Source: Arsukibacterium sp. UBA5043 (GTDB taxonomy: Bacteria > Pseudomonadota > Gammaproteobacteria > Enterobacterales > Alteromonadaceae). From it: a stretch of 64,000 bases of DNA. The notes under the pieces were generated by a model. That model worked only from the letters and a program-made list of their open reading frames with translations, was not told where the DNA came from and ran no database searches. A program made the position numbers and the translations under genes. Of this stretch, positions 34,685-56,151 are shown piece by piece. Where the stretch lies: positions 233,262-297,261 of the forward strand of contig DIBV01000013.1 in the NCBI GenBank assembly GCA_002415085.1. Reading direction: 5' to 3'. The number at the start of each line of letters is the position of its first letter. Positions within the stretch are counted from its first letter, which is position 1.

Positions 34685-36199
34685 ATGATTAATGCAGTAA
34701 ACGATGTGGTAAAAAGTGCAGTAAAAAAAGTAGTGGTCTTAGGCGGCGGCACTGCCGGCTGGATGGCTGCAGCGTTGCTGAAAAAGGTGCTGGCCACTGC
34801 GGTCGATATTGAATTGGTGGAGTCGGAAGACATCGGCACCGTTGGTGTCGGAGAAGCCACCATACCACCCATCCGGTTGTTTAATAATGTGATGGGCATA
34901 AACGAAGCCGAGTTTTTACGCGAAACCAAAGCCACCATTAAACTGGCGATAAAATTTGATAACTGGCGGGTGCCGGGTGAAGGCTACTTCCATACCTTTG
35001 GCGCGCCGGGTAAAAGCCTGGCGTTTTGTCATTTTCATCATTTATGGCTGCGCGCCCGTCAGCAAGGCGATAAAACCGATTTATGGCAATACGATTTAAA
35101 CTATCTGTGCGCGATGGCGGGTAAGTTTGCGCCAATCAATGCCAAAGACAGCATCTTAGAACTGCCATATGCCTATCACTTTGATGCCGGTCTTTATGCT
35201 CGCTACTTAAGAAAGCTTAGCGAGCAAATGGGGGTGGTGCGTCATGAAGGTAAAGTACAGCAGGTATTTCAGCACCCCAGTGGCGATATAAAATGCCTGG
35301 TGCTGGACGATGGCCGCGAGCTTAGCGGCGATTTGTTTATTGATTGTTCGGGGTTTCGCGGTTTGCTTATTCAGGACAAGCTGAATGCCGGCTATGATGA
35401 CTGGAGCCACTTTTTACCCTGCGATCGCGCGGTAGCCGTGCCATCAGAGCGCTTTGAAAAAACCATACCTTATACCCGCGCAATTGCTCACAGTGCCGGC
35501 TGGCAGTGGCGGATTCCGCTACAGCATCGAAACGGCAATGGCCTGGTGTACAGCAGCGCCCATTATAGCGATGAGCAGGCCAGTGACTTACTGCTGGCCA
35601 ATTTAGAGCGTAAAGCGTTGGCCGAACCGAAGTTTCTGCGTTTTAAAACCGGCCGTCGTCGCCAGCAATGGCAGCGAAATGTGATAGCGGTGGGGTTAAG
35701 TAGCGGTTTTCTAGAACCACTGGAATCGACCAGTATTCATTTGATCCAGTCAGCCGTGGTGCGGTTGATCCAGCTGTTTCCGCACAATGGCATTTGCCAG
35801 AGTGCTATTAACGAATACAACAGGCAATCCGAGCTGGAATATACCCAAATTCGCGACTTTCTGATTTTGCATTATCACGTTAATCAGCGCAATGACAGCC
35901 AGTTCTGGCGTGATATGCAACAACTTGCGATACCAGACAGTTTGCACCAGAAAATGGCTATTTTTGCCGACAATGGTCAGTTGTTCAGGGATCAAAATGA
36001 TTTATTCCTGGAAAGCTCCTGGCTGCAGGTAATGTTGGGCCAGGGTATAGAGCCAAAAGATTATCATCCGATCGCCAATAATTTCAGTGCCGAAAAGCTG
36101 CGCGATATGCTGGCCAATATTCAGGCGATTAAGCAAGAACCGCTCGGTAAACTACCTGATCATGATACCTTTATTCAAACCATGATTAGCCGCAGTTAA
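34685..36199 (+). CDS. Flavin-dependent halogenase-like protein (tryptophan halogenase family)
   Basis: Protein of 504 residues. The FAD motif is VVLGGGTAGWMAA near residues 17-29. Lys86 in ATIKLAIKF is where the family keeps its catalytic lysine, and a WQWRIP segment matches the family signature WxWxIP. EPLES (344-348) in GFLEPLESTSIHL is a hallmark around the catalytic glutamate. Family members transfer activated chloride or bromide to aromatic rings using FADH2 from a separate reductase, which is not seen here. Members next to TonB receptors in sugar loci have no proven substrate, so the tryptophan label is only a family name. The ribosome-binding site is weak; a later start before the GGGTAGW motif cannot be excluded. 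Confidence 0.85.
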   Translation: MINAVNDVVKSAVKKVVVLGGGTAGWMAAALLKKVLATAVDIELVESEDIGTVGVGEATIPPIRLFNNVMGINEAEFLRETKATIKLAIKFDNWRVPGEGYFHTFGAPGKSLAFCHFHHLWLRARQQGDKTDLWQYDLNYLCAMAGKFAPINAKDSILELPYAYHFDAGLYARYLRKLSEQMGVVRHEGKVQQVFQHPSGDIKCLVLDDGRELSGDLFIDCSGFRGLLIQDKLNAGYDDWSHFLPCDRAVAVPSERFEKTIPYTRAIAHSAGWQWRIPLQHRNGNGLVYSSAHYSDEQASDLLLANLERKALAEPKFLRFKTGRRRQQWQRNVIAVGLSSGFLEPLESTSIHLIQSAVVRLIQLFPHNGICQSAINEYNRQSELEYTQIRDFLILHYHVNQRNDSQFWRDMQQLAIPDSLHQKMAIFADNGQLFRDQNDLFLESSWLQVMLGQGIEPKDYHPIANNFSAEKLRDMLANIQAIKQEPLGKLPDHDTFIQTMISRS

Positions 36200-41497: not shown

Positions 41498-44356
41498 ATG
41501 AATAAGTTTAAGCTTAGTCTGCTTAGCCTTGCTGTGAGTACAGCAGGGCTAAGTTCGTTGGCGGTGGCTCAGCAACAACCGCCGACCGAAGACACCGCTG
41601 CAGAAGAGCAGCAGGTTGAAGTAATACAGGTACGGGGCTTTGCCAGCAGCTTGTTCCGCTCGCTCGATACCAAACGCTTTGGCGATGTGGTATCTGAAAC
41701 CATCTCAGCCGATGATCTGGGGGCCTTGCCCGATGTGTCAATCGCTGATGCCCTTACCCGCTTGCCCGGTATTTCCGCAGTGCGTACCGGTGGACAGGCA
41801 GCAGAAATTAACATCCGGGGTATGTCGGGTGGTTTTGTGTTTTCCACCTTAAACGGCCGCGAGCAGGTTTCGACCAGCGGTAAACGCAATATCGAATTTG
41901 ACCAGTATCCGTCGGAGTTAATTAATTCGGCAGCGGTATATAAATCTCCAAAGGCGTCGTTAATTGAAGGCGGCGTAGCCGGTACGGTTGAGCTGAAAAC
42001 GGCCAGTGTACTGCTGAATGAAAAAGACCATAGCTTTAACGTTAACCTGCGCGGCATGTTTAACGACCGGGCAGACGAAGTGCCGGATGGCCAGGATTTC
42101 GGCCATCGCTTCAGTTTTTCTTATCAGGGTAAGTTTCTGGACAACACCTTAGGGTTAGCACTGGGCTATGCCCGGCTGTATCAGCCCAGTGTTGCCACTC
42201 AGTTTATCGGCCTGGCCTACAATGGTCAGAAAGATGTGGCCGGCGATGAACAGAACGAGTTTATCAGCGAAGGTTTCGAAATTCAGCATCTGGGCGGTGA
42301 AGAAACCCGTAATGGCTATCTGGGCTCTATTGAGTGGCAACCGCATGATGCCTTTAGTTTAAAAGCAGATGCCTTTATTTCTCAGTTTGACAAAGAATCT
42401 TTTGCCCGCGGTTTACGGGTTAAATTTGGCGGCGACCAGGCCAATTATGCTAATCCGGTTCTAAATAACCGTTCAGTAATTGGTGCGAATGTTAGCCGTT
42501 CTAACAGCCCGGGCCGGGAAAGTTTTACCCGGGTAGAAATTGTTAATGATGATAACCGTGACTATGACGAAGTAAAAAGTTTTGGTATTGCTGCGGACTG
42601 GGATATCAACGATCGTACTAATCTGGTGTTCGACGTGTCGCACTCTACTGCCAACAGCGACTTCAGAAATGGCTTGTTGTGGGCGCTGGTGGCGGAAGAC
42701 GCGACGGTAGCAGCTCCCCAGCTGGATACAAATGTATCTATTTCCTACTTACTGAACGGCATGGACCTGCCCAGTATTGGCTTTAACCAGGCCGATGCGT
42801 TCTCCGATATCGACCGGGTTATGGTCAGTAAATACGGCATTTACCCCTTTGTAAACAGTGATGAAGTCAGTGCAGTAAAACTGGATTTAAGCTATGACCT
42901 GGATTTACCCATTGTCCGTTCGTTTGAAGTGGGGGTGCGATACTCAGAGCGCACTTACAGCAATGATCGTTCCGTATTTGAATATGGCAGCGATGGCGCC
43001 TTTTTAAATTCACAACCGCCGCTGCGTTTAACCGCAGATATGGCAAAAGTAGTGGATTTCAAGGGTGATTTTGCCAAATATCCAAGTTATCTGGCAATTG
43101 ATCTGGATAAGGCATTAGCGGCCTGGTTTCCGGAAGGGGTGCCCCAGCCGGTCCAAACCTGGGGCGCCGGTAATGTTGGGGTGATTAACCGCGACCCAAC
43201 CTCAAATGTCGATACCAGCTGGTCGGTGCTGCAAAGTGGTGAAGTATATGAAGATGTACTGGCTGCCTATCTGATGGCCAACCTCGATACCGAAATTTTC
43301 GATTTACCGTTAAGTGGTAATGTTGGGGTACGCCGGGTAACCACCGATCAGTCAGCCACCGATTTAACCCATGTTGGCGGCGACGAATTGCGCGGAGCCC
43401 AGAATATCACCGACGATGCCGGCCTGGTCAATAACCAGTATGCCCCTGGCATTCTGGGCGAGAAATATACTCATTATTTGCCTAGCATTAACTTAAATTT
43501 AAGCCTGACCGACACTACCCAGCTGCGGTTTGCGGCGGCGAAAGTGATTTCACGGCCACCGATTAACCGTTTGGCGTCCAATACTTCTATTAATATCAGC
43601 GATGATGGCGAAATTAGCGGCTCCAGCTCAAACAGCCCGTTCCTGCGGCCATTTGAAGCCAACCAGTACGATTTATCCTACGAGTATTATTTTGGCAGCG
43701 GCGCTGTGGTAGCAGCATTGTTTTATAAAGATATTCAGAATTTTATAAATGATTTTACCATTCAGGAGTTTGATTTTGCCGGCGCTGGTTTTGCCGTGCC
43801 GGACGTCATTATTGATGAAGATGATATTCCGCGAACTACTTTTAATGGCGCCTTTTCCACTGCGGTAAACAATGACCGTGGCGGCTATATCCGTGGCCTC
43901 GAGCTGGCGTACACCCATGTGTTCGACTTCCTGCCGGATTTCTGGTCGGGCCTTGGGGTAAGTGGCAGTTACTCCTACACCGAAAGTGAAGTAGAGCTGA
44001 TCAACACCCTGGGTGGTGAAGCAATAACCACCACCTTCGAAGGGCTGTCAAAAAATGTCTTTAACGGCACCCTGTTCTGGGAGCATGACGGCGTGGAAGC
44101 GCGGGTTAATGCCCGCTACCGTTCGCCCTTTGTCTCAAGCCAGGTAGGTATAGATGAGCAGATCACCAACTTCGACAGTGAATTAGTGGTTGATATGCAA
44201 TTTGGTTACGAGTTTAACGACAACCTTAAGCTGCTGTTCCAGGTGAATAACCTGACCGACGAGCCAACCAAAAGTTATTTTGGCCAGAAGGCCCAGACCG
44301 GTACCTTGCAGTTTTTTGGCAGACAGTACTTTGTCGGCGCCGTGTACTCGTTTTAA
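41498..44356 (+). CDS. TonB-dependent receptor paired with pullulanase
   Basis: Receptor of 952 residues of the same large type as the one at 31660. Signal peptide is about residues 1-25 (AVAQQ). The plug has VIQVRGFASSLFRSLDTKR near 44-62, VVSETISADDLGALPDVSIA and IRGMSGGFVFSTLNGREQ. The barrel ends in GAVYSF. It shares the palindromic operator with the first receptor and lies 70 bp before a pullulanase, so it probably imports alpha-glucan fragments released at the surface. The two receptors differ in sequence, so they may recognise different chain lengths or branches. Confidence 0.9.
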   Translation: MNKFKLSLLSLAVSTAGLSSLAVAQQQPPTEDTAAEEQQVEVIQVRGFASSLFRSLDTKRFGDVVSETISADDLGALPDVSIADALTRLPGISAVRTGGQAAEINIRGMSGGFVFSTLNGREQVSTSGKRNIEFDQYPSELINSAAVYKSPKASLIEGGVAGTVELKTASVLLNEKDHSFNVNLRGMFNDRADEVPDGQDFGHRFSFSYQGKFLDNTLGLALGYARLYQPSVATQFIGLAYNGQKDVAGDEQNEFISEGFEIQHLGGEETRNGYLGSIEWQPHDAFSLKADAFISQFDKESFARGLRVKFGGDQANYANPVLNNRSVIGANVSRSNSPGRESFTRVEIVNDDNRDYDEVKSFGIAADWDINDRTNLVFDVSHSTANSDFRNGLLWALVAEDATVAAPQLDTNVSISYLLNGMDLPSIGFNQADAFSDIDRVMVSKYGIYPFVNSDEVSAVKLDLSYDLDLPIVRSFEVGVRYSERTYSNDRSVFEYGSDGAFLNSQPPLRLTADMAKVVDFKGDFAKYPSYLAIDLDKALAAWFPEGVPQPVQTWGAGNVGVINRDPTSNVDTSWSVLQSGEVYEDVLAAYLMANLDTEIFDLPLSGNVGVRRVTTDQSATDLTHVGGDELRGAQNITDDAGLVNNQYAPGILGEKYTHYLPSINLNLSLTDTTQLRFAAAKVISRPPINRLASNTSINISDDGEISGSSSNSPFLRPFEANQYDLSYEYYFGSGAVVAALFYKDIQNFINDFTIQEFDFAGAGFAVPDVIIDEDDIPRTTFNGAFSTAVNNDRGGYIRGLELAYTHVFDFLPDFWSGLGVSGSYSYTESEVELINTLGGEAITTTFEGLSKNVFNGTLFWEHDGVEARVNARYRSPFVSSQVGIDEQITNFDSELVVDMQFGYEFNDNLKLLFQVNNLTDEPTKSYFGQKAQTGTLQFFGRQYFVGAVYSF

Positions 44357-44426: not shown

Positions 44427-47400
44427 ATGTTTAAGCCAACGATTTTTAATATAAAAAGTCTGCTCAGGCTAAGTACGCTTGCTATCACGGTAAGTGTACT
44501 GGCTGCTTGTGGCGACTCAACCGAGCCCGGTGAAGTATTATTAACCTGTAATGTGCCGCAAATACCCGATGCCAGTGGCGTTGAATGTATCGATCCACCA
44601 CCACTATCATGTCCTACCGGACAATTTCCCAACGAGACAAATGACAGCTGCATCGTGGGTAAAGATCCCAACGCGCCAGTTCCGGTGGTGTTTGCCGGAG
44701 AAAATCAGGCAGTGTTGTTTTACAACCGACCGGATGATAATTATAACGGCTACCGGTTACATACCTGGAACAATGAAGCCTGTGACGCTTATCAGGACTC
44801 GTCCATCGCCGAGTCGTGGGCTAACGGCCTAATCCATGACGGCGTTGATACAAATTATGGCGCTTACTGGATACTGGAACTAAAACCAGGTTATGCCGGC
44901 ACTGAGGGCGCCTGCGGTAATTTTATTATTCATATTGGTACTGATGACGCCGGTAAAGATCCGGGCGCAGATATGAGAATGCCGTTGTCACAGGATGACC
45001 CTGATTTTAGCCGGATGAACTGGGTTTTCTCTGGTGTAAACAGTGTTTTCGAATTTCCGGTGGTATCACTTGGCGTCAGCATTCAGGGCGCCGCTGGTCA
45101 CTGGTTAGACACCAATACCTTTATCTGGAATTCGGCAATTGCGGATACCGCCAACGAAATAAAACTTTTCTATGCAGCTGACGCTGATCTGGCTGTGAAT
45201 AATAATGATGAGCTGGAAGGCAGCAGTATCGAGTTAACTCCGGCGGAGTTGAGCGACGAGCAAAAAGCGCTGGTACCACATATGGCCAACGCCGCCGCTT
45301 TTAGTGCTGATTTTACCGCAGATGAAGCGAAAGCCATGGCGAAAAATCAGCTGGCACTGGCCGCTTACAACAGCGACGGTGAGCTGGTTGCCGCCAGTTA
45401 TGTGCAGGTCGCTAAAGTACTGGATGCCTTGTATACCACGGGTGATAACAGCGCGCTAAACGCCGATTTAGGGGTGCATTATGCCGAAGGCAATATCACC
45501 GCTGCGGTATGGGGCCCGACTGCCCGCAGCATGACCTTAAAAGTGTATAACAGCGATAAAACCGTTGCCGCCAGCCATTCGATGAGCCTGGATGCACAAA
45601 CCGGTGTCTGGTCTTACAGTGGTGCAGAAAGTGCGCTAGACCGTAAATTCTATCGTTATGAAATAACGGTATATCACCCGTTAACCCGGGCAGTAGAAAC
45701 CATTGAAAGCACCGACCCCTATTCAGTCAGTGTGTCGACCAATGGCCGCTACAGCCAGTTCGTTAACCTGGCTGATGCTGACCTGGCGCCTGAAGGCTGG
45801 AGCGAGCGCACTGTGCCGGTGGTAGCGAACCCGGAAGATAGCGTCATTTACGAAGGGCATGTCCGTGATTTTAGTATCCGTGATAGCAGTACCAGTGCCG
45901 CCAACCGTGGTAAGTACCTGGCGTTTACTGAGATGGAGTCTGCCCCGGTAAGCCACCTGAAAAAACTGGCCGACAATGGTTTAACTCATTTTCATGTGCT
46001 GCCATTAAATGATCAGGCCAATATTGAAGAGCGGGCTAACCGCCGGATTAACTTAACCGATACGGTTGCGCAGCTGTGTGCGTTAAATGCAGATGCACCG
46101 GTCTGTGGTGTGGCAAGCGACAGCGCCACCCTGCAATCGCTGCTGGAAGGCTACCTGCCCTACAGTGATGATGCCCAGGCACTGGTTGAGTCTATCCGCC
46201 GGATTGACGGCTTTAACTGGGGTTATGACCCGCATCACTTTATTGCCGTTGAAGGCAGCTATGCCTCTGATCCGGAAGGTGCAGTACGGATTAAAGAAGT
46301 ACGGGCGATGGTTAAAGCGTTAAACGATATTGGCCTGCGGGTAGCGCTGGACGTAGTATATAACCATACCAGCAGTTCTGGCCTGTTTGATAACTCGGTA
46401 TTTGATAAGTTGGTGCCGGGCTACTACCACCGTTATAACGAAGTCACTGGCGTGATTGAGCGCTCAACCTGCTGTGAAAACACCGCAACTGAACACAAAA
46501 TGTTCGATAAGTTTATTAAAGACTCGTTAGTTATTTTAGCCCGCGATTTTGGCTTTAATGACTTCCGCTTCGATATTATGGGCCATCATCCGAAAGATAA
46601 CCTGTTAGCCGCGCGCGACGCCGTGCGGGCGGTCGATGCCAATACCTATTTTTATGGTGAAGGCTGGAATTTTGGTGAAGTGGCAGATAACCGTTTATTT
46701 ACTCAGGCCAAGCAGCAGGATATGGCCGGTACCGAAGTGGGCACCTTTAACGACCGGATCCGGGAAGGTGTGCGTAGTGCGGCCATTTTCAGCGGCGTTA
46801 ATAACGATGGTAACCTGGCCGAGCAGGATATTATCCGGATTAGTTTAGCCGGTACCTTAAAAGATTATGTGCTGAAAAACTATCGGGATATTACCGGCCC
46901 GGCGTCCAGCGCCAACTGGAATGGTCAGGCTGCAGGTTATGCTGAAGACCCGGCCGATATTATCAACTATGTGTCTAAACATGATAATGAAACCCTGTGG
47001 GATATTCTGCAGAACCGCTTACCGCAGACATTAAGTGTGACTGAAAGGGTGCGGGCGCAGAATATGGCGATAGCCTTGCCGTTAATGAGCCAGGGTATTC
47101 CATTCCTGCAAATGGGTGGTGACTTCCTGCGCTCTAAATCGATGGACCGCGACAGTTATGACTCAGGCGACTGGTTTAACTATGTTGATTTCACCATGCA
47201 AACCAACAACTGGGCGGTTGGCCTACCACTGGCCGAGAAGAACCGTGATAGCTGGGACAGTATTGCTACGTTATTCCTGAACCCGCAAACTCAGGTTAGC
47301 AGCACCGACATTATGTTTGCGTCTGATGTGTTCGCTGAATTTCTGGCGATCCGCAGTGGCAGCCCGTTATTTCGCTTAACCACCGGCCAGGATGTAATGG

Positions 47401-48413
47401 ATCGGGTAGGCTTTCATAATATTGGCAGCAACCAGACCCAGGGTGTGATTGTGATGTCGATTGATGATGGCAGCGGCCTGACTGATTTAGACCCGATGCA
47501 TGACGCCTTAGTGGTAATGGTTAACGGCACCGCGCAGGAGCAGTCACACACTGTGCCTACTGCTACCGGTTTTGACTTGCACCCGCTACAGCAGGCGTCA
47601 GTTGATACTAATGTCAGTATGGCCAGCTTTACCGCGGGTACCGATGAAGGAACCTTTACTGTGCCGGCCTACAGCATGGCGGTATTTGTTAAAGCGCAAA
47701 TGGGTGAGCAAGGCCCGGGCTTAGCCGCGGATGCCACCTTAGGTGCACCGGATATTCCACCGTATGAAGCCACAACCATATTTGTCCGCGGTGGAATGAA
47801 TGACTGGGGCGAAAACGATGCCTTTAACTATGCTGGCGCGGGTATTTATAGTGCCACCCTGAATATTAATGCCGGTAGTTATGAGTTTAAGGTGGCTTCA
47901 GGGGATTGGTCTGCGGTTAATCTGGGCGCGGGTGCGGCGGGCAATCAGGTTGTAGTTGATACGCCTATCGTCATTGCACCAAGCAACGATAACCTGCTGT
48001 TAAATATTCCAAGCACCTCTGCTTACGTATTTACCTTAAATGCAGTAAATCCGGCAGCACCTACGCTAACGGTTAGCGAGTATGTGCCTTACGGCGCCAC
48101 TACGGTGTTCTTGCGGGGTGGCATGAATGACTGGGGTGAAGCGGATGCCTTCCAGTACCTGGGAGCAAACCAGTACAGCGTCGATATCAGTATCAACGCC
48201 GGCAGCTATGAGTTTAAAGTCGCGTCCAGTGACTGGGCCACAGTAAATATGGGGGCGGGGCCGGACGGTGCCACAGTATCCGAGGGCACCCCACTGCGTA
48301 TTCAGGGCAGCAACGACAATCTGAATATGAACTTTGCCGAAAACGCGGTATATAACTTCCTGTTAGATGCCACATTAACAGAAACACCCGAGCTGACGGT
48401 GACCAGGAAATAA
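44427..48413 (+). CDS. pulA: Pullulanase-type GH13 debranching lipoprotein
   Basis: Surface or periplasmic enzyme of 1,328 residues that cleaves alpha-1,6 branches in starch-like glucans. The lipobox is LAAC with Cys28. Residues about 85-190 look like a CBM41 domain (FYNRPDDNYNGYRLHTWN). A CBM48-like segment follows (VHYAEGNITAAVWGPTARSM near 350). The GH13 domain has ALDVVYNHT near 637-645, nucleophile Asp716 in FRFDIMGHH, acid/base Glu745 in YGEGWNFG and stabilising Asp853 in SKHDNETLW. Two C-terminal modules with a 109-residue period start near 1115 and 1224. It is probably co-transcribed with the TonB receptor. Confidence 0.93.
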   Translation: MFKPTIFNIKSLLRLSTLAITVSVLAACGDSTEPGEVLLTCNVPQIPDASGVECIDPPPLSCPTGQFPNETNDSCIVGKDPNAPVPVVFAGENQAVLFYNRPDDNYNGYRLHTWNNEACDAYQDSSIAESWANGLIHDGVDTNYGAYWILELKPGYAGTEGACGNFIIHIGTDDAGKDPGADMRMPLSQDDPDFSRMNWVFSGVNSVFEFPVVSLGVSIQGAAGHWLDTNTFIWNSAIADTANEIKLFYAADADLAVNNNDELEGSSIELTPAELSDEQKALVPHMANAAAFSADFTADEAKAMAKNQLALAAYNSDGELVAASYVQVAKVLDALYTTGDNSALNADLGVHYAEGNITAAVWGPTARSMTLKVYNSDKTVAASHSMSLDAQTGVWSYSGAESALDRKFYRYEITVYHPLTRAVETIESTDPYSVSVSTNGRYSQFVNLADADLAPEGWSERTVPVVANPEDSVIYEGHVRDFSIRDSSTSAANRGKYLAFTEMESAPVSHLKKLADNGLTHFHVLPLNDQANIEERANRRINLTDTVAQLCALNADAPVCGVASDSATLQSLLEGYLPYSDDAQALVESIRRIDGFNWGYDPHHFIAVEGSYASDPEGAVRIKEVRAMVKALNDIGLRVALDVVYNHTSSSGLFDNSVFDKLVPGYYHRYNEVTGVIERSTCCENTATEHKMFDKFIKDSLVILARDFGFNDFRFDIMGHHPKDNLLAARDAVRAVDANTYFYGEGWNFGEVADNRLFTQAKQQDMAGTEVGTFNDRIREGVRSAAIFSGVNNDGNLAEQDIIRISLAGTLKDYVLKNYRDITGPASSANWNGQAAGYAEDPADIINYVSKHDNETLWDILQNRLPQTLSVTERVRAQNMAIALPLMSQGIPFLQMGGDFLRSKSMDRDSYDSGDWFNYVDFTMQTNNWAVGLPLAEKNRDSWDSIATLFLNPQTQVSSTDIMFASDVFAEFLAIRSGSPLFRLTTGQDVMDRVGFHNIGSNQTQGVIVMSIDDGSGLTDLDPMHDALVVMVNGTAQEQSHTVPTATGFDLHPLQQASVDTNVSMASFTAGTDEGTFTVPAYSMAVFVKAQMGEQGPGLAADATLGAPDIPPYEATTIFVRGGMNDWGENDAFNYAGAGIYSATLNINAGSYEFKVASGDWSAVNLGAGAAGNQVVVDTPIVIAPSNDNLLLNIPSTSAYVFTLNAVNPAAPTLTVSEYVPYGATTVFLRGGMNDWGEADAFQYLGANQYSVDISINAGSYEFKVASSDWATVNMGAGPDGATVSEGTPLRIQGSNDNLNMNFAENAVYNFLLDATLTETPELTVTRK
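47769..48413 (+). repeat. Duplicated 109-residue C-terminal module of the pullulanase
   Basis: Two tandem copies, starting at 47769 and 48096 (327 bp apart), encode near-identical segments. Shared motifs are RGGMNDWGE, INAGSYEFKVAS and VN(L/M)GAG. The pattern of Trp and Tyr in short strands suggests a beta-sandwich, possibly for alpha-glucan binding. The family was not identified with certainty. Confidence 0.75.
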
Positions 48414-48428
48414 ACTGCTAAACTGATG

Positions 48429-48459
48429 AAAAAAGCTGCAGCCCGTCTGCAGCTTTTTT
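48429..48459. terminator. Bidirectional terminator after pulA
   Basis: AAAAAAGCTGCAG / CTGCAGCTTTTTT is a perfect 13-bp stem with a five-base loop and T-runs on both strands. It touches the stop of the convergent TPR gene. Confidence 0.9.
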
Positions 48460-49670: not shown

Positions 49671-50012
49671 ATGAAGCAGGTGTTAGTGGGTGGCGTGGTA
49701 ACGATGTTGTTGTTAACCAGTCAGCAGTTGCTGGCGCAACAGCAAGCCGGGCAAAGTATGCATTGCCAGCTGGGTGATGCAGTACGGGTGATTGAAGTGG
49801 TATACCCTGACGGCGGTGAGCTGCCGTGCGAAGTGCATTACACCAAAGACGGTACCGGCACTGTGCTGTGGCGGGCCAGCAATGAGGCCGGATACTGTGA
49901 ACAGCAGGCCGCAAACTTTGTTGAAAAACAGCGGGGCTGGGGCTTTGAATGTGTGGCCATGCCCTCTGCCAATGAAAACGCTGACAGCAATGACAGTAAA
50001 AGCAGGCAATAA
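49671..50012 (+). CDS. Small secreted protein with four cysteines
   Basis: Protein of 113 residues with a signal peptide (about 1-22, ending LLAQQ). The mature part has four cysteines, in MHCQLGD, LPCEVHYTK, GYCEQQA and FECVAMP, consistent with two periplasmic disulfides. The tail is acidic and serine/asparagine-rich. TAGGAG precedes the ATG. No family is recognised with confidence, although the cysteine layout looks conserved rather than random. Confidence 0.6.
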   Translation: MKQVLVGGVVTMLLLTSQQLLAQQQAGQSMHCQLGDAVRVIEVVYPDGGELPCEVHYTKDGTGTVLWRASNEAGYCEQQAANFVEKQRGWGFECVAMPSANENADSNDSKSRQ

Positions 50013-50025
50013 TTGATACCGGTTA

Positions 50026-51756
50026 TTATTGGGCGATGCTTATTAGCAGTTGCTGCACCTGGTGCTGGATGTCAGCTGCCAGCGCTGGGGTTAGCATAAC
50101 CCGCTGCAAGTAACTTTGTGCTTCGCCGTGCCGGCCAGCTTTTAGTAATATTTGGGCGGCCTGCAGATTGGCGTTGGCGTCGTGTGGTAGTGCATCGGCG
50201 ATGATTTTTAAGGTTTTTAATAGCATATCGCCATCGCCCTGCTGGTGATAATACTGTGCATTGCGATTTTGCAGGCTGAGCCAGTCCAGTTTGCCCGCGA
50301 CATATGCCTGGCCCCACTGCTGCTGTACTGTTTGTGCTGGCGGGAACTGCACTTGCTGCGGCTGCGGGCTAAACGGATAGTCGGCTTTCAGCTGTAAAAT
50401 ACGCAAATAGCCTGCATGCTCTTCGGCTGGGGTAATGGGTCTTTCCTGCCAGGCAATTTCTGGGGGGACCGGCTTGTGCCAGCTGCCCAATGCCTGGTTG
50501 CGACCCAGCGCGTTATAAAAACTGTCTGCCAGTAAAAAATAACCCTGCACGTTAGGATGCACATGCTCCAACAGCAGGTTGTTGCCGGTTACACCGTCAG
50601 GCGAATTAGCGATAAAAGCCGCTTCGTTGTCAACCAGGGTAGCGTTGTAGCGCCTTGCCAGCTGCCTGATCTGCTGGTTAATGGCTTCGGGTGCCCGAAA
50701 GCGCAATAGATCGTGTTCTTTTGCCAGCAAAAACTGAGCGTTAGCTTGCCGATGCTGGTTGCGCTGCTGATGCACCAGAGCCAGCTGATAATGAAAATCG
50801 GCTGAATGCTCTGCATCTGCCTGCGAGCTGAGCGTCGAGAGCAAAGCGGCATCGTTACTGTCTGCTGTACCCGCCTCGGTATTGGCCTCTGCCAATTGTT
50901 GTAGCTGTAGTTTTGCTGTGGCTGGGATCGGTTTGCTGTTAAAGGGTGGCTGGCCGGCCAAATTGCTGACCAGCGTGCTGATATACACCGGAATGCCTGC
51001 CCGCTGATACTTAGCCAGCAACCGGCTGAGGTTGCTGTCAAACTGCTTAAGGCCAGCCTGAAACTGTGCTGAGCCAAGCGCAATGTCTTTATCCCGCGCC
51101 ACTCTGGCCATAAAGGTGCGGCTGCTTTCATCGGCGCCCTGCAGCGGTTGGTTCAGCTGCTGATACAACTGCTCCATCAGCTGAAAGCTGTGTAATTTAC
51201 GCAAGCTGATCATCAGCCGGGTAGCGCCAGGGCTTTGTCCGGCCAGATAATGTGAACCCACCCCGAGCAATCCCAGATATTCGTTATGGCCAGCATAAAT
51301 GAGTACCGCATCCGGTTTAATGGCAATAATTTCATCGGCCAGGTCCAGCAAGGTATAGCTGTTAACAGCAGCTAAGGCAGTATTAACCACTTCTACCCGT
51401 TGGCCGCTAAAAGTGCGGCTTAGCCGTTGCTCCAGCATCGCCGCCAGTGAGGCTCCGGCGCCATACGGATAACCGGCAGCGGTTGAACCGCCTTGCACCA
51501 CTACCCGGATGGCGTTAGCAGGCTTGTCTGCCAGCACAAATGCCGGCTCCATTTTAACGCTAGGCAGCTGAGTATTATTGGCAAAATAACGTTTAACAAT
51601 ATCGGTTTCGCTAACCAGATAGGCCGGATTGGCCGGGTTGGTTTTAAATAAAGGCCAGTTATTGCCGGCACCGGTTGCCCGTAACGCCAGTTCTGCCAGT
51701 ACTACCACCAGTAGTGGTAAGGCCAGGGCAATGGCCCGAAATATCCAGATTCGCAT
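50026..51756 (-). CDS. Membrane-anchored SGNH/GDSL hydrolase with TPR segments (paralogue 2)
   Basis: Protein of 576 residues. One N-terminal membrane segment (about 5-25) puts the rest outside the cytoplasm. SGNH blocks: Ser91 in VQGGSTAAGYPYG, Asn158 in YAGHNEYLG, and His400 in LLEHVHPN. Here Glu397 takes the usual Asp position of DxxH. A helical TPR-like stretch is inserted at about 310-355 between blocks III and V, and another is at the C-terminus. The family usually adds or removes acyl groups from glycans. Its start is five bases after the stop of the upstream paralogue. The divergent carbamoyltransferase group lies beyond that paralogue. Confidence 0.78.
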   Translation of the reverse strand: MRIWIFRAIALALPLLVVVLAELALRATGAGNNWPLFKTNPANPAYLVSETDIVKRYFANNTQLPSVKMEPAFVLADKPANAIRVVVQGGSTAAGYPYGAGASLAAMLEQRLSRTFSGQRVEVVNTALAAVNSYTLLDLADEIIAIKPDAVLIYAGHNEYLGLLGVGSHYLAGQSPGATRLMISLRKLHSFQLMEQLYQQLNQPLQGADESSRTFMARVARDKDIALGSAQFQAGLKQFDSNLSRLLAKYQRAGIPVYISTLVSNLAGQPPFNSKPIPATAKLQLQQLAEANTEAGTADSNDAALLSTLSSQADAEHSADFHYQLALVHQQRNQHRQANAQFLLAKEHDLLRFRAPEAINQQIRQLARRYNATLVDNEAAFIANSPDGVTGNNLLLEHVHPNVQGYFLLADSFYNALGRNQALGSWHKPVPPEIAWQERPITPAEEHAGYLRILQLKADYPFSPQPQQVQFPPAQTVQQQWGQAYVAGKLDWLSLQNRNAQYYHQQGDGDMLLKTLKIIADALPHDANANLQAAQILLKAGRHGEAQSYLQRVMLTPALAADIQHQVQQLLISIAQ

Positions 51757-51761
51757 CGGGC

Positions 51762-53573
51762 TTAGTCTCCTGCTGCCAATTGTTGAAGTAATTGCTGTTG
51801 CTGACGCAACGCCACCTTGTGCTGCGGCTGCTGTGCCAGGACCCGCTCTACTTCTGCCAGCGCCCGCCTAAGCTGTTGCTGGTAATAATAACTGCGGGCC
51901 AGCATTAAGCGATAGTCGGTATTCTCTGGTGCGATGGCCACGGCTTTGCGCTGATAATGGGCTGCCAGAGGCAGTTGCTGGCTATCGAAATACAATTGGC
52001 CAGCCACAAAAGCCATATGACTCTCGGTAGGCAACGCATCCGCTAATAACGCCGCAACTTTGGCGGCATCGCTAATCCGGCCCTGCTGCTGATACAGGGT
52101 AACCAGCCGCTGACTGGCCTTAAGCCAGCTTAAGCCATTGCTGCGCTCGCGTGCCAGTGCAATAAAGGGGTTGCTGTCAGGTGCAAAGCTGACCGGTTGT
52201 GGTGATGCGACAAAAGGATAATCGGCGGTCAGCTGGCGCACCTTAAATTGTGCCAGTGCCAGATCCACTTCGGTTAAGGGAATGTCGGCCAGCGCTTGCG
52301 CGGGCGGTATCACACCGGTTTCAACCTGGTTCAGCCCCAGTTGTTGCTGCAACTCGGGCAAAAACGCTTCAGCCAGATAAAAATAGCCCAGCTGGTTAGG
52401 GTGCAGATGCTCCAGCATCAGTTGCTTGTCAATTATGCCATCAGGGCTGTGCCGGCGCAGCAGTGCCTCACTGTCTATCAAAGGGAGATTAAAATCGCTA
52501 CTTAACTTCTTCAGGGTTATGTTGATGGTCGCGGGTGCCCGAAAGCGCAGCAAATCATGCTCGCGCGCCAGCTGATAGTGGGCCAGTGCCTGCTGTTTGT
52601 CACCACGTTGCTGGTACAATCCGGCCAGTTGAAAGTGCCAGCTGGCAATATCGGATTCCGCATTCAGTGCCTGTTGCAGTTGCGGGATAGTCGGGTTTGG
52701 CAGTGCGGGCTTTGCCGAGACAAAAGGCGGCTGGTCGGCTTCGTTACTGGCAACGGTGCTAAGCAGAACAGGAATGCCAGCAGCCTGATATTTTGTCAGC
52801 AACAGGCCCATGTTGGCATGAAACTGTTCAATGCCAGCATTAAACAGGGCCGTGTCTTTACCAATTTCAGTATGGCGGGCAATTTGGGCCATCATGGTGC
52901 GGTTTGGTTGCAGGCTTGCAGGCGGGCTGACGCTGATATAAACACGTTGCAGCGCCTGAAATAATGCCAGTTTACGCAGCTTTAAATACAGCAGTTTAGT
53001 GCCGTGATTATACTCACCGGCAAAGGCAGACCCTACCCCCATTACCCCTAAAAACTCATTGTGGCCAGCATATACCAGCACCAGATCAGGCTTAAGCGCA
53101 ATGACTTCATCACTGATATCCAGCAGGGTATAGGAGTTTATTGCCGCCATAGCCAGGTTAATAACTTCAATATTCTGTTCGGGATACAATCGTTTTAAGC
53201 GTTGTTGCAACATGGCCGCCGGTGCGCCCCAGCGGCCATAAGGAAAGCCGGCAGCTGAAGAGCCGCCAATAAAAATGATCCGCTGCTGGTTCGGCGCTTT
53301 TCTGGCCTGAAAATACTGGGTGTCGGGGCTAACCTGCGGCGCCAGCTCAGGCGCGGCAAAATAGCGGTTAATCAGGGCCGGGTTGGCTTGCTGGTACCCT
53401 GCCATCGCTGGTACCGGTACCACTAACGGATAGCGTTGATACAGGCTGGTCTGGCGTAGCAGTAACTCTGCCAGCAGCAGTAATATAAGGGGTAACGCCA
53501 GGGCAATACTGTAAAACACTACTTTTTTACGGGTGAGTGTCTTGTTAGCTGTTACGGGCGGATAATCGGTCAT
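51762..53573 (-). CDS. Membrane-anchored SGNH/GDSL hydrolase with TPR segments (paralogue 1)
   Basis: Protein of 603 residues and the paralogue of the next gene. A cytoplasmic N-tail leads to one membrane segment (about 18-39). Ser105 in FIGGSSAAGFPYG, Asn172 in YAGHNEFLG and His391 in MLEHLHPN are the likely catalytic and oxyanion residues, again with Glu (388) in place of the usual Asp. TPR-like segments occur at about 310-345 (SWHFQLAGLYQQRGDKQQAL) and about 490-603. The intergenic region to the divergent carbamoyltransferase is about 150 bp. The two hydrolases probably work on the same modified polymer but may have different specificities. Confidence 0.78.
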   Translation of the reverse strand: MTDYPPVTANKTLTRKKVVFYSIALALPLILLLLAELLLRQTSLYQRYPLVVPVPAMAGYQQANPALINRYFAAPELAPQVSPDTQYFQARKAPNQQRIIFIGGSSAAGFPYGRWGAPAAMLQQRLKRLYPEQNIEVINLAMAAINSYTLLDISDEVIALKPDLVLVYAGHNEFLGVMGVGSAFAGEYNHGTKLLYLKLRKLALFQALQRVYISVSPPASLQPNRTMMAQIARHTEIGKDTALFNAGIEQFHANMGLLLTKYQAAGIPVLLSTVASNEADQPPFVSAKPALPNPTIPQLQQALNAESDIASWHFQLAGLYQQRGDKQQALAHYQLAREHDLLRFRAPATINITLKKLSSDFNLPLIDSEALLRRHSPDGIIDKQLMLEHLHPNQLGYFYLAEAFLPELQQQLGLNQVETGVIPPAQALADIPLTEVDLALAQFKVRQLTADYPFVASPQPVSFAPDSNPFIALARERSNGLSWLKASQRLVTLYQQQGRISDAAKVAALLADALPTESHMAFVAGQLYFDSQQLPLAAHYQRKAVAIAPENTDYRLMLARSYYYQQQLRRALAEVERVLAQQPQHKVALRQQQQLLQQLAAGD

Positions 53574-53721
53574 TGCTTAAGTAATCAGCGGCAGGATATC
53601 AACGACGGTAACCGATGTTTTTAAGCGCAGCAAGTTTTGGCGCATTTGAACTACCGGCAATTGTCAATTAAGGTTACTTTAGATAAGTATTTTATAATGG
53701 GTGCTGCTCGACAGCCGGCTT

Positions 53722-55560
53722 ATGCAATATATTCTGGGTATTTCCTGTTTTTACCACGATAGTGCGGCGTGTTTACTGGCCGACGGAGTTATTGTGGCTG
53801 CGGCCCAGCAGGAGCGTTTTAGCCGGTTAAAGCACGATGCAGGGTTTCCCGCCGATGCCATCCGCTATTGTTTAGCCGAGGCCGGGATCGGGGTGACTGA
53901 TTTAAGCGCCGTAGTGTTTTACGATAAACCGCTGTTAAAGTTCGAGCGTTTACTGGAAACCTATCTGGCCCATGTGCCCCGGGGTTTTCGCTCCTTTCTG
54001 ACCGCTATGCCGGTATGGTTAAAAGAAAAGTTGTATCTGAAAACCGTGCTGCGCCGCGAGCTTCGCACTTTGGCAGGTATGGATAGAAAAACCACACTGC
54101 CACAGTTGTTGTTTAGTCAGCATCATCAGGCACATGCTGCCTCAGCCTTTTATCCCAGCCCCTATCAGAACGCGGCTGTTATCTGTCTGGATGGGGTTGG
54201 CGAGTGGGCTACCTCTACTATCTGGCACGGTAAAGACACCAGCTTAACTCCATTGTTCGAATTGCAGTTTCCGCATTCGCTGGGGTTGCTCTATTCTGCC
54301 TTTACTTACTACTGTGGTTTTAAAGTTAACTCCGGTGAATATAAGCTAATGGGCCTGGCGCCTTACGGCGAACCACGTTTTGTAGAAACCATTTATCGAG
54401 AGCTGATTAAGGTAAAACCTGACGGCAGCTTTGCCCTGAATATGGCCTATTTTAGCTATCCGGTGGGCTCGCGCATGGTAAACCGCAAGTTTGAACAGTT
54501 ATTTGGTGTGCCGCCCTTAAGCGCTGAGGCAACGCCCAGCCAGTTTTATCTGGATTTAGCCCGTTCGGTGCAGCAGGTTACCGAAGAAATTGTGCTGAAA
54601 ATTGCCCATCATGCCCATCGTTTAACCGGAGCAACAAAGCTGTGTCTGGCTGGTGGCGTGGCGCTGAATTGTGTGGCCAATGGTCGCTTGTTACGGGATG
54701 GACCCTTTAGTGATATATGGGTGCAGCCGGCAGCCGGTGATGCTGGTGGCGCATTGGGCGCTGCGCTGCTGGCCTGGCATCAGTATTTTCAGCAGAGCAG
54801 AGCGGCAGATGAGCAGCATGATCAGATGCAGGGTAGCTATTTGGGACCGGCTTATAGCGATACCGAAATAGGTCGATTACTTGCAAGTCAACAAGTGCCA
54901 TATCAGCAATTAAGTGACAATATGCTGTATCACACCACCGCGGGTTTACTGGCAGCAGGCCAGGTAGTGGGCTGGTTTCAGGGGCGGATGGAGTTTGGCC
55001 CCAGAGCTCTGGGTAACCGCTCTATTTTAGCTGACGCCAGAAGCACTGCTATGCAAAGCATTCTTAATATAAAAATTAAACAACGTGAATCGTTCCGGCC
55101 CTTTGCCCCGGCGGTATTAACTGAACATGCCAGCGAATATTTTGATCTTAGTGCTGAAAGCCCTTATATGTTGCTGGTGGCTAAAGTGAACCCTGAATTG
55201 TGTATTAGCCTGCCGCCAGAAACCCGCGGCTTAGCCAAACAGGCAGAGCAGCGCTCTAGTCTGCCCGCCATTACTCATATTGATTATAGCGCCAGGGTGC
55301 AAACGGTGAGTAAGTCGGGTAATCCACGGTTTCATCATTTGCTGCAAACCTTTCACGAATTGACGGGAACGCCAATACTGATTAATACCTCGTTTAATGT
55401 TCGGGGCGAGCCGCCGGTTTGTAGTCCGGCTGAAGCGTTACAGGGCTTTCTGGCTACCGACATGGATTATCTGGTGCTGGGCAACTGTATCCTGAGTAAA
55501 GCTGAGCAGGACCCGGCACAGTTGGCCGCTGCCAGATTGCGCAGTTTTGCAAATGACTAA
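53722..55560 (+). CDS. Carbamoyltransferase, NodU/CmcH family
   Basis: Enzyme of 612 residues that moves a carbamoyl group from carbamoyl phosphate, through carbamoyl-AMP, to a hydroxyl. The N-terminus YILGISCFYHDSAACLL starts the Kae1-like domain. HHQAH near residues 134-138 in SQHHQAHAASAF holds the metal-binding histidines. The C-terminal domain has FQGRMEFGPRALGNRSIL near 420-437 and ends with the family motif LINTSFNVRGEPPV. Related enzymes modify Nod factor, cephamycin and other glycans. The ATG at 53722 gives the canonical N-terminus; a GTG seven codons upstream is in frame. It heads an operon with SxtJ-like and DUF5989 genes. Confidence 0.92.
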   Translation: MQYILGISCFYHDSAACLLADGVIVAAAQQERFSRLKHDAGFPADAIRYCLAEAGIGVTDLSAVVFYDKPLLKFERLLETYLAHVPRGFRSFLTAMPVWLKEKLYLKTVLRRELRTLAGMDRKTTLPQLLFSQHHQAHAASAFYPSPYQNAAVICLDGVGEWATSTIWHGKDTSLTPLFELQFPHSLGLLYSAFTYYCGFKVNSGEYKLMGLAPYGEPRFVETIYRELIKVKPDGSFALNMAYFSYPVGSRMVNRKFEQLFGVPPLSAEATPSQFYLDLARSVQQVTEEIVLKIAHHAHRLTGATKLCLAGGVALNCVANGRLLRDGPFSDIWVQPAAGDAGGALGAALLAWHQYFQQSRAADEQHDQMQGSYLGPAYSDTEIGRLLASQQVPYQQLSDNMLYHTTAGLLAAGQVVGWFQGRMEFGPRALGNRSILADARSTAMQSILNIKIKQRESFRPFAPAVLTEHASEYFDLSAESPYMLLVAKVNPELCISLPPETRGLAKQAEQRSSLPAITHIDYSARVQTVSKSGNPRFHHLLQTFHELTGTPILINTSFNVRGEPPVCSPAEALQGFLATDMDYLVLGNCILSKAEQDPAQLAAARLRSFAND

Positions 55561-55585
55561 CCCGTTAGCTTATTAAGGATGCATG

Positions 55586-55999
55586 ATGCAGTTGTTGTTA
55601 AAAACTGACCGCGCCGGGTTGCGTACCTTTGGCTGGCAAATGGCCATTGCCTTGCCGTTAGTGTTTTCGCTGTTGCTACCCTGGATATTGGATTCTCTTA
55701 CCGTGGCTACCTTGCCGCTATGGCCACTGATGGTAGCGGCGGTGTTTTTATTGCTGGCGGGTTTGTGGCCAACCGGCCTGTATTATCCGTACCGGGCCTG
55801 GATGGCTTTTGCCAGAGTAATGGCCTGGATCAACACGCGGCTGCTGCTTGGCCTGGTATTCTATCTGCTGCTATTGCCGCTGGGCCTGGTGCTGCAATTA
55901 CTTGGTAAGTTGCAGTATAAGCATAAACCAGCAGGTGACAGCTACTGGCTGGCGCCCGATAAAATACCCACCGCCAAAGATTTAGAGGATCCGTTTTAA
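55586..55999 (+). CDS. SxtJ-like small membrane protein
   Basis: Protein of 137 residues with three or four membrane segments (about 16-36, 42-61, 82-113). The start RAGLRTFGWQMAIALPL, the central LWPTGLYYPYRAWM and the end APDKIPTAKDLEDPF match SxtJ, a protein named from saxitoxin clusters whose function is unknown. It almost always follows a carbamoyltransferase of this type. AAGGA lies six bases before the second of two adjacent ATG codons, so that one is preferred. Its stop overlaps the next start (TAATG). Confidence 0.83.
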   Translation: MQLLLKTDRAGLRTFGWQMAIALPLVFSLLLPWILDSLTVATLPLWPLMVAAVFLLLAGLWPTGLYYPYRAWMAFARVMAWINTRLLLGLVFYLLLLPLGLVLQLLGKLQYKHKPAGDSYWLAPDKIPTAKDLEDPF

Positions 56000-56151
56000 T
56001 GCAGGAATTTTTAACTGATTTATGGGCATTTTTACGGGTTCGTAAAAAAATCTGGCTACTGCCAATCATTCTGGTGCTGGCGCTACTGGGCGCGCTGGTG
56101 GTAGTAAGCCAGCAATCGGCGCTGGCGGGGTTTATTTATACCTTATTTTAG
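55999..56151 (+). CDS. DUF5989-type 50-residue membrane microprotein
   Basis: A 50-residue protein that starts inside the SxtJ-like stop codon (TAATG). It begins MQEFLTDLWAFLRVRKKIWL, followed by a single membrane helix (about 20-37) and SALAGFIYTLF at the end. This layout (DLWxFxRxRKKxWLLPI and a terminal FIYTLF) matches the DUF5989 family found next to SxtJ. The function is unknown; it may be an accessory subunit of the membrane complex. The size puts it below common gene-calling limits. Confidence 0.8.
   Translation: MQEFLTDLWAFLRVRKKIWLLPIILVLALLGALVVVSQQSALAGFIYTLF

What the first reader, a model, noticed from the sequence alone, without database searches (positions are those of the whole stretch)
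50026..56151. SGNH hydrolase pair with carbamoyltransferase, SxtJ-like and DUF5989 genes: candidate undescribed envelope-modification system
Two TPR-containing membrane-anchored SGNH hydrolases lie divergent from a carbamoyltransferase, SxtJ-like protein and a 50-residue microprotein, the last two coupled by TAATG. SxtJ and DUF5989 have no known function. A plausible reading is that the system attaches carbamoyl groups to a glycan or lipid and the SGNH enzymes handle acyl groups on the same polymer. No glycosyltransferase or polymer-export gene is nearby, so the carrier would be made elsewhere.
Basis: partly seen in the sequence, partly recalled or inferred. Interest (0 to 1): 0.72.

Follow-up and report, generated by a model that had tools for sequence, protein, structure and literature searches.

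The report
Carbamoyl-shuttle genes in starch-use locus
Five neighbouring genes of a water bacterium form a real, co-inherited unit that may make a small carbamoyl group inside the cell and pass it through a tiny membrane protein to enzymes outside, beside starch-eating genes; if so, it is a new way of moving such groups across a membrane.

Summary
In detail: two membrane-anchored SGNH proteins, divergent from a class III carbamoyltransferase (CT), SxtJ and DUF5989. They are a unit: of 98 relatives 24 have DUF5989, 24 a strong SGNH match, 23 both. Two things change the reading. First, DUF5989 ends in FIYTLF, the FXYXXF "acyl-shuttle" tail by which DltX and PatA hand an acyl group from a tyrosine to an SGNH serine (PMC12148441); that tyrosine is in 121 of 121 copies. 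In four genomes CT-SxtJ and DUF5989-SGNH lie apart. The window's genome has no MBOAT match. Second, the locus is for alpha-glucan use: 55 of 57 complete modules in named loci have GH13/GH31 genes nearby, against 0 of 59 shorter DUF5989 loci from a phylum sample. Best model: CT activates carbamoyl, SxtJ-DUF5989 carry it across on a tyrosine, SGNH transfers it to a carbohydrate outside. Loading, transfer, acceptor and SxtJ's role are inferred; SGNH proteins linked to the trio elsewhere look more like hydrolases. Saxitoxin clusters list the same kinds of part (sxtI-J-K-L).

The parts
50026..51756 (-). SGNH-A: membrane-anchored SGNH/GDSL protein, 576 aa; proposed periplasmic transferase (or esterase)
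51762..53573 (-). SGNH-B: membrane-anchored SGNH/GDSL protein with TPRs, 603 aa; Ser104, Asn171, Glu387 and His390 invariant in 51 of 51 aligned sequences
53722..55560 (+). class III O-carbamoyltransferase, 612 aa from ATG 53722 (GTG 53701 also possible)
55583..55999 (+). SxtJ-family membrane protein, 138 aa, three hydrophobic segments; proposed membrane partner of the carbamoyltransferase
55999..56151 (+). DUF5989 microprotein, 50 aa; positive N-terminal part, then a hydrophobic stretch; proposed DltX-like shuttle
56131..56148 (+). codons of the C-terminal FIYTLF hexapeptide (FXYXXF acyl-shuttle pattern; Tyr47 at 56137-56139)
44427..48413 (+). pullulanase-type enzyme beside the module (context)
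   Evidence: Pullul_strch_C E 1.3e-56, Pullulanase_N2 4e-27, CBM_48
41498..44356 (+). TonB-dependent receptor (context)
34685..36199 (+). tryptophan-halogenase-like flavoprotein (context)
31660..34524 (+). TonB-receptor plug protein (context)
28625..30787 (-). GH77 4-alpha-glucanotransferase, MalQ-like (context)

Best explanation
The five genes encode a machine that moves a carbamoyl group across the inner membrane and puts it on a carbohydrate outside the cytoplasm. (1) The cytoplasmic class III carbamoyltransferase makes carbamoyl-AMP from carbamoyl phosphate and ATP (inferred from family and intact residues). (2) With the membrane protein SxtJ it loads the carbamoyl group on the invariant tyrosine of the DUF5989 tail FIYTLF, predicted to face the periplasm (inferred; role as in DltX). 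(3) The tail enters the active site of the membrane-anchored SGNH proteins, whose serine takes the group and transfers it to a hydroxyl of the acceptor (inferred by analogy with DltD/PatB). (4) In this lineage the acceptor is most likely an alpha-glucan or malto-oligosaccharide handled by the adjoining starch locus, or a surface glycan (weakly inferred). Shown here: gene content, co-inheritance, conservation of catalytic and tail residues, the split-genome pairing, absence of an MBOAT match in the window's genome, and the starch context.
For: DUF5989 tail: Tyr at -4 in 121 of 121 copies, strict FxYxxF end in 102 of 121; of 1070 mechanically called background ORFs one ends that way, and it is an MBOAT. 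The motif's role is demonstrated for DltX and PatA (PMC12148441). DUF5989 mean net charge +2.3 before the membrane stretch and 0 in the last 12 residues; SGNH mean +2.0 before its segment and -0.1 after. Split genomes: 4 of 4 genomes with SGNH+DUF5989 but no CT in the locus have CT+SxtJ elsewhere without DUF5989, and only one DUF5989 match in the assembly, beside SGNH. G032 has two DUF5989 genes, each beside an SGNH gene, and one SxtJ match. No MBOAT match in the window's genome; one in 2 of the 19 module genomes among the 60 searched (18 with DUF5989, plus G074). CT iron ligands and general base conserved in 59 of 59. SGNH block II Gly replaced by Ala (43) or Ser (8) in 51 of 51. HypF, of a neighbouring class, carbamoylates a protein's C-terminal cysteine (PMC9633730 passage). 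Other lineages: a GDSL match within 6.5 kb of DUF5989 in 18 of 54 genomes, 0.69 expected. Starch context: 55 of 57.
Against: No DltX profile match at E up to 10 in the six DUF5989 proteins tested; the link is a six-residue tail plus architecture. SxtJ is small and its way of moving carbamoyl is unexplained. PMC12148441 gives Ser or Asn at block II as the transferase mark; here it is mostly Ala. In the 18 SGNH proteins near the trio in other lineages (two clusters, read by eye) 17 keep the block II Gly typical of hydrolases; the one with Asn lies beside an MBOAT. 36 of 54 genomes have no GDSL match within 6.5 kb of DUF5989, though many contigs are short. 12 of 76 named SGNH loci show none of the other three families. 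G041 and G048 have a second divergent SGNH without DUF5989. MBOATs do occur in two module genomes of the genus. No structure prediction could be run.
Confidence: 0.47

Rival explanations
1. Carbamoylation in the cytoplasm, removal outside: CT, held at the membrane by SxtJ and DUF5989, carbamoylates a sugar or lipid-linked intermediate, and the SGNH proteins are esterases that later remove carbamoyl or acyl groups, as proposed for SxtL.
For: SxtL is proposed to be a decarbamoylase (PMC2679770, PMC3037375 passages). Most characterised SGNH proteins are esterases or hydrolases (PMC12148441). Trio-linked SGNH proteins of other lineages keep the block II Gly in 17 of 18 read by eye.
Against: Gives no reason for an invariant C-terminal tyrosine tail on DUF5989 or for DUF5989 staying with SGNH rather than CT in split genomes. 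Block II Gly is replaced in 51 of 51 TPR-SGNH relatives.
Confidence: 0.3
2. Accessory of starch use: the SGNH proteins de-esterify substituted glucans during uptake, and the CT group makes a carbamoylated molecule of its own; the genes are together because they are co-regulated, not because they form one machine.
For: Starch-locus context in 55 of 57 complete modules; an esterase gene (PF00756) lies in several of these loci.
Against: CT-SxtJ-DUF5989 occurs with other SGNH proteins outside starch loci. Identity distances correlate between CT and the near SGNH (Spearman 0.45) but also with the pullulanase (0.36), so this test does not decide.
Confidence: 0.13
3. Pure envelope modification: carbamoyl groups on LPS or capsule made elsewhere, the starch genes being incidental neighbours.
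For: In other lineages neighbours of the trio include glycosyltransferase, GDP-mannose-dehydratase-like and LptF/G-like proteins.
Against: GH13/GH31 beside 55 of 57 modules versus 0 of 59 DUF5989 loci of the phylum sample with the same profiles (those loci are shorter, median 16.0 against 21.7 kb); all 23 relatives with both DUF5989 and SGNH carry the pullulanase, versus 36 of the other 75.
Confidence: 0.1

Closest known systems
Dlt D-alanylation system (DltB-DltX-DltD) and PatA/PatB
   Same: Membrane microprotein (DltX) or MBOAT tail ending in FXYXXF with an invariant Tyr; SGNH partner with a catalytic Ser; group activated in the cytoplasm (PMC12148441 passages and Discussion).
   Different: No MBOAT in the module or in the window's genome; activation by a carbamoyltransferase; SxtJ instead of an MBOAT; no DltX profile match.
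sxtI-sxtJ-sxtK-sxtL of saxitoxin clusters
   Same: Same kinds of part and similar sizes: carbamoyltransferase 1839 bp, SxtJ 405 bp, a 165-bp gene, a GDSL-lipase gene.
   Different: Here the SGNH genes are divergent, doubled and longer, in a starch locus. That SxtK is DUF5989 is inferred from size and listing order, not tested.
Class III carbamoyltransferases (TobZ, GdmN, NovN)
   Same: Kae1-like and YrdC-like parts; iron ligands and general base conserved.
   Different: Those modify antibiotics; this one is too short for the GdmN dimerisation domain and comes with two small membrane proteins.
AT3-SGNH acetyltransferases (OatA)
   Same: Group crosses the membrane via a Tyr to an SGNH Ser (PMC12148441).
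   Different: No AT3 domain among the five proteins (AT3 proteins elsewhere in the genome were not searched); the Tyr lies on a separate C-terminal tail.
Alpha-glucan (starch) utilisation loci
   Same: Pullulanase, GH13, GH31, GH77, TonB receptors, MFS, tryptophan-halogenase-like protein nearby in the window or relatives.
   Different: The carbamoyl module is an optional addition: 12 of 16 genus members without it still have the pullulanase.

Membership tests
MBOAT-SGNH acyl-shuttle systems (Dlt, Pat) | C-terminal FXYXXF with invariant Tyr | tested here: met
   window FIYTLF; Tyr 121 of 121, strict FxYxxF 102 of 121
MBOAT-SGNH acyl-shuttle systems (Dlt, Pat) | MBOAT protein that loads the Tyr | tested here: not met
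   0 PF03062 matches in the window's genome; one in 2 of 19 module genomes searched
MBOAT-SGNH acyl-shuttle systems (Dlt, Pat) | membrane-anchored SGNH with catalytic Ser and His | tested here: met
   Ser and His 51 of 51; one N-terminal hydrophobic segment, by hydropathy
MBOAT-SGNH acyl-shuttle systems (Dlt, Pat) | block II Gly replaced by Ser or Asn (transferase mark) | tested here: inconclusive
   Ala 43, Ser 8, Gly 0 of 51 at the position read as block II; 17 of 18 trio-linked SGNH proteins of other lineages keep Gly
MBOAT-SGNH acyl-shuttle systems (Dlt, Pat) | DltX homology of the microprotein | tested here: not met
   no DltX match at E up to 10 for six DUF5989 proteins; HMMER filters can hide weak matches
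MBOAT-SGNH acyl-shuttle systems (Dlt, Pat) | acyl-Tyr and acyl-Ser intermediates | not testable with these tools
   needs biochemistry
Class III carbamoyltransferase | Carbam_trans_N and _C domains; iron ligands and general base | tested here: met
   His12, His134, His138, Asp157, Asp340 in 59 of 59
Class III carbamoyltransferase | carbamoyl transfer activity | not testable with these tools
   needs assay
sxtIJKL-type carbamoylation module | SxtJ-family protein next to CT | tested here: met
   PF19588 over cut-off
sxtIJKL-type carbamoylation module | SxtK belongs to DUF5989 | not tested
   toxin-cluster genes were not fetched; only size (165 bp) and listing order from papers
sxtIJKL-type carbamoylation module | GDSL/SGNH gene of the SxtL subfamily | not tested
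   same superfamily by Pfam and by the papers' annotation; sequences not compared
Alpha-glucan utilisation locus | alpha-glucan glycosidase plus outer-membrane receptor genes beside the module | tested here: met
   window: pullulanase and TonB receptor; 55 of 57 complete modules with GH13/GH31; of 43 complete modules on full-length loci 42 with GH13/GH31 and 35 with a TonB or halogenase-like gene

The most novel reading that the evidence does not exclude
A third kind of transmembrane acyl-transfer machine, beside MBOAT-SGNH and AT3-SGNH: a soluble carbamoyltransferase and the small SxtJ protein charge the C-terminal tyrosine of a microprotein (DUF5989) with carbamoyl, and SGNH proteins transfer it outside the cytoplasm, here to glucans of a starch-use locus. 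By extension SxtK would be the shuttle and SxtL the final transferase rather than a decarbamoylase in saxitoxin clusters.
Probability: 0.33. Interest if true: 0.9.

Novelty: new variant of a known kind. Interest (0 to 1): 0.72.

Why it matters
It would give a function to DUF5989 and SxtJ, families I found no function for (DUF5989 matches in 58 of 398 genomes of a phylum sample), explain how carbamoyl groups could reach molecules outside the cytoplasm, extend the tyrosine-shuttle principle to systems without MBOAT or AT3 proteins, and add an unexpected chemical step to bacterial starch use. It also gives a testable alternative for the unexplained sxtJ, sxtK and sxtL genes.

Tried and rejected
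Rejected or weakened: (a) chance neighbourhood: against it stand. (b) DUF5989 as a recognisable DltX homologue: no profile match, so only likeness of tail and architecture is claimed. (c) TPR-SGNH partnered with an adjacent MBOAT where the trio is absent: ten chosen ORFs of L105, L112 and L123 gave hydrogenase subunits, a tRNA synthetase, P450, MOSC, a TPR protein, a CxxCxxCC protein and three without a family, no MBOAT; 7 of the 16 genomes searched do have MBOATs somewhere. One MBOAT ending FIYFDF lies in a trio cluster of another lineage (L168). (d) Solved structures: in the 60 rows shown of 213 the SGNH profile matched only through its TPR parts, so no SGNH template. (e) Distance correlation: CT-SxtJ 0.61, CT-near SGNH 0.45, CT-pullulanase 0.36, SxtJ-pullulanase 0.51; not decisive. 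(f) Promoter and terminator scans: 6 against 6.1 and 12 against 9.6 in shuffles. (g) Literature: no paper with DUF5989; searches for SGNH with carbamoyltransferase, SxtJ or exosortase gave 8 and 7 papers, none on such a module by title; the term search with acyl shuttle, FXYXXF, DltX, SxtK and carbamoyltransferase gave 10 papers, none joining the shuttle terms with SxtK or carbamoyltransferase as far as term counts and titles tell, apart from three that hold both DltX and carbamoyltransferase in other subjects; one paper, on PatA/PatB, for O-carbamoyl, carbamoyltransferase, MBOAT, SGNH, microprotein; four titles for carbamoyltransferase, pullulanase, TonB receptor and Alteromonas, none on this. 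bioRxiv and most subscription journals were not searchable; the DltX-mechanism paper was not held and is known here only through PMC12148441. Papers seen: passages of PMC2684587, PMC2679770, PMC7073992, PMC3037375, PMC9633730, PMC9487903 and PMC11035591; abstract, opening, passages and Discussion of PMC12148441; all others as listings only. (h) On re-reading I found that 17 of 18 trio-linked SGNH proteins of other lineages keep the block II Gly while the one beside an MBOAT has Asn (the pattern misread several, so the count is by eye from both printouts); I lowered the best explanation from 0.50 to 0.47 and the novel case from 0.35 to 0.33 and raised the esterase rival from 0.27 to 0.30 for this.
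Full report
What is there. The window carries SGNH-A (50026-51756, minus), SGNH-B (51762-53573, minus), a carbamoyltransferase (53722-55560, plus), an SxtJ-family protein (55583-55999, plus) and a 50-residue DUF5989 protein (55999-56151, plus), overlapping its neighbour as TAATG. The nearest named loci found with the SGNH profile are six Arsukibacterium contigs, 74-81% identical in SGNH-B, so the window comes from that group or close to it.

A real unit. Of 98 relatives DUF5989 occurs in 24 and a strong SGNH-B match (E < 1e-50) in 24, both in 23. The exceptions are G086 (the trio without a strong SGNH, on a 9.6-kb contig) and G074 (SGNH, CT and an SxtJ cut by the contig end). Within the genus 15 of 31 have both and 16 neither. 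Six further genomes had only weak SGNH-B matches (E 1.5e-9 to 9.5e-4), five of the six within the TPR part. PF02543 matches with E < 1e-60 occur in 25 genomes: the 24 with DUF5989 and G074. Five weaker long CT genes (in G005, G009, G030, G047, G095; E 5e-16 to 1e-53) lie on other contigs or in genomes without the module; the remaining rows are fragments or short weak matches. In 76 named loci found with the SGNH profile, 57 have all four families, 4 SGNH+DUF5989, 2 SGNH+CT, 1 SGNH+CT+SxtJ and 12 SGNH alone. The tool kept the best 80 of 486 matches, giving these 76 loci, so they lean to close relatives, and some are cut by contig ends.

Catalytic state. The CT matches GdmN, TobZ and a novobiocin carbamoyltransferase in the PDB. 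The residues named for GdmN (general base H27; iron ligands H133, H137, D156, D333; PMC9633730 passages) align with H12, H134, H138, D157 and D340, each conserved in 59 of 59 aligned CTs of at least 590 aa. In SGNH-B, Ser104, Gly169, Asn171, Glu172, Glu387 and His390 are invariant in 51 of 51.

The tail. PMC12148441 describes an acyl-shuttle hexapeptide FXYXXF at the C-terminus of DltX and of MBOAT proteins such as PatA; its tyrosine carries the acyl group to the SGNH serine. DUF5989 of the window ends FIYTLF. In two sets (60 ORFs of a phylum sample and 61 of named SGNH loci) the tyrosine at -4 is present in 121 of 121 and the strict pattern in 102 of 121. Of 1070 mechanically called background ORFs of at least 90 aa one ends with the strict pattern, and that protein is an MBOAT. 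Related sequences were not down-weighted. The N-terminal part carries a mean of 4.1 Lys/Arg and the last 12 residues none, which by the positive-inside rule (recalled) puts the tail in the periplasm, where the SGNH domain is predicted to be. No DltX profile match was found.

Who travels with whom. Four genomes have SGNH+DUF5989 in a locus without CT (L100, L103, L115, L117). Each has one DUF5989 match in the assembly, and one SxtJ match elsewhere, next to CT and without DUF5989 within the 1.5-kb flanks. Three of the four have no MBOAT match. G032 has two DUF5989 genes, each beside an SGNH gene, one of them in a locus with a GH16 gene, and one SxtJ match. Against this, G041 and G048 carry a similar second SGNH without DUF5989. 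Of 12 genomes searched that hold a TPR-SGNH gene apart from the trio, 11 have DUF5989; PF19588 was found in 12 of 17 genomes.

Wider occurrence. In a phylum-wide sample DUF5989 matches occur in 58 of 398 genomes, 56 above the family cut-off. I fetched 59 loci; left out were the window's own genome, G032 and two sub-threshold hits, and two adjacent copies of one genome share a locus. CT was found in 54 of 59, SxtJ in 45 of 59 with my own profile, and none of the GH13/GH31 profiles in 59. These loci have a median of 16.0 kb, 37 of 59 being 15 kb or more, against 21.7 kb for the named loci, so the contrast is not fully matched. A GDSL match lies within 6.5 kb of DUF5989 in 18 of 54 genomes, with 0.69 expected from match number and genome size. 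Representative neighbours include two SGNH groups, glycosyltransferases, a nucleotide-sugar dehydratase-like protein and LptF/G-like proteins.

Starch context. Neighbour families were identified as GH13, GH31, cyclomaltodextrinase, MFS, TonB receptor, tryptophan-halogenase-like and esterase; in the window a pullulanase and GH77. Of 57 complete modules in named loci 55 have GH13 or GH31 nearby, all 55 with a profile score of at least 100; the two without are L088 and the 6.7-kb L099. The pullulanase itself is in 59 of 98 relatives, including all 23 with both DUF5989 and SGNH and 36 of the other 75; so the module is an addition to a starch locus, not a requirement of it.

Model. CT activates carbamoyl; SxtJ and DUF5989 bring it across on the tail tyrosine; SGNH transfers it. 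[quoted passage not shown] The weak points are SxtJ, for which no mechanism is known to me, and the acceptor, which only the context suggests. Replacement of the block II glycine in the TPR-SGNH family (Ala 43, Ser 8 of 51) agrees with transfer rather than hydrolysis but is mostly not the Ser or Asn reported for OatA and PatB. Of 18 SGNH proteins near the trio in other lineages 17 keep the glycine; the one with Asn, in L168, lies beside an MBOAT (read by eye). That contrast speaks for hydrolysis in those lineages.

Relation to saxitoxin clusters. Papers list sxtI (1839 bp), sxtJ (405 bp), sxtK (165 bp) and sxtL (1281 bp, GDSL-lipase) with consecutive accessions and say SxtI acts together with SxtJ and SxtK. 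In Lyngbya wollei sxtI is truncated and sxtL missing, and the product lacks the carbamoyl group; the authors read SxtL as a decarbamoylase. These are the same kinds of part. That SxtK belongs to DUF5989 was not tested.

Verdict. The unit and its starch context are well supported; the shuttle mechanism is the best reading at slightly under even odds.

Noticed in passing
window 57995-64000 (+, runs off the end): An open frame of at least 2002 aa follows the DEAD-box helicase gene; it was not annotated here.
   Followed up: no
window 48459-49511 (-): A 350-aa TPR-like protein, no family above its cut-off, lies between the pullulanase and the module.
   Followed up: partly
window 49671-50012 (+): A small 113-aa protein beside SGNH-A, grouped with relatives in 6 of 30 compared loci; no family above cut-off.
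   Followed up: partly
window 34685-36199 and 36258-37541: A tryptophan-halogenase-like flavoprotein and a pectinacetylesterase-like protein in the starch region; the role of such halogenase-like proteins in sugar-use loci is not explained here.
   Followed up: no
L168 6704-14245 (-): An MBOAT protein ending FIYFDF, three GDSL-like proteins (one below the family cut-off) and the CT-SxtJ-DUF5989 trio lie in one cluster, so both kinds of shuttle may serve one pathway.
   Followed up: partly
L049, L058, L059: A longer SGNH protein (694-706 aa) in loci with GH16, cupin and halogenase-like genes, once with its own DUF5989: a possible second, beta-glucan version.
   Followed up: partly
SGNH N-termini (positions 35 and 39 of SGNH-B): Glu35 (47 of 51, the rest gaps) and Arg39 (47 of 51, one Lys, three gaps) at the outer edge of the membrane anchor are nearly invariant, perhaps a contact for DUF5989 or SxtJ.
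   Followed up: no
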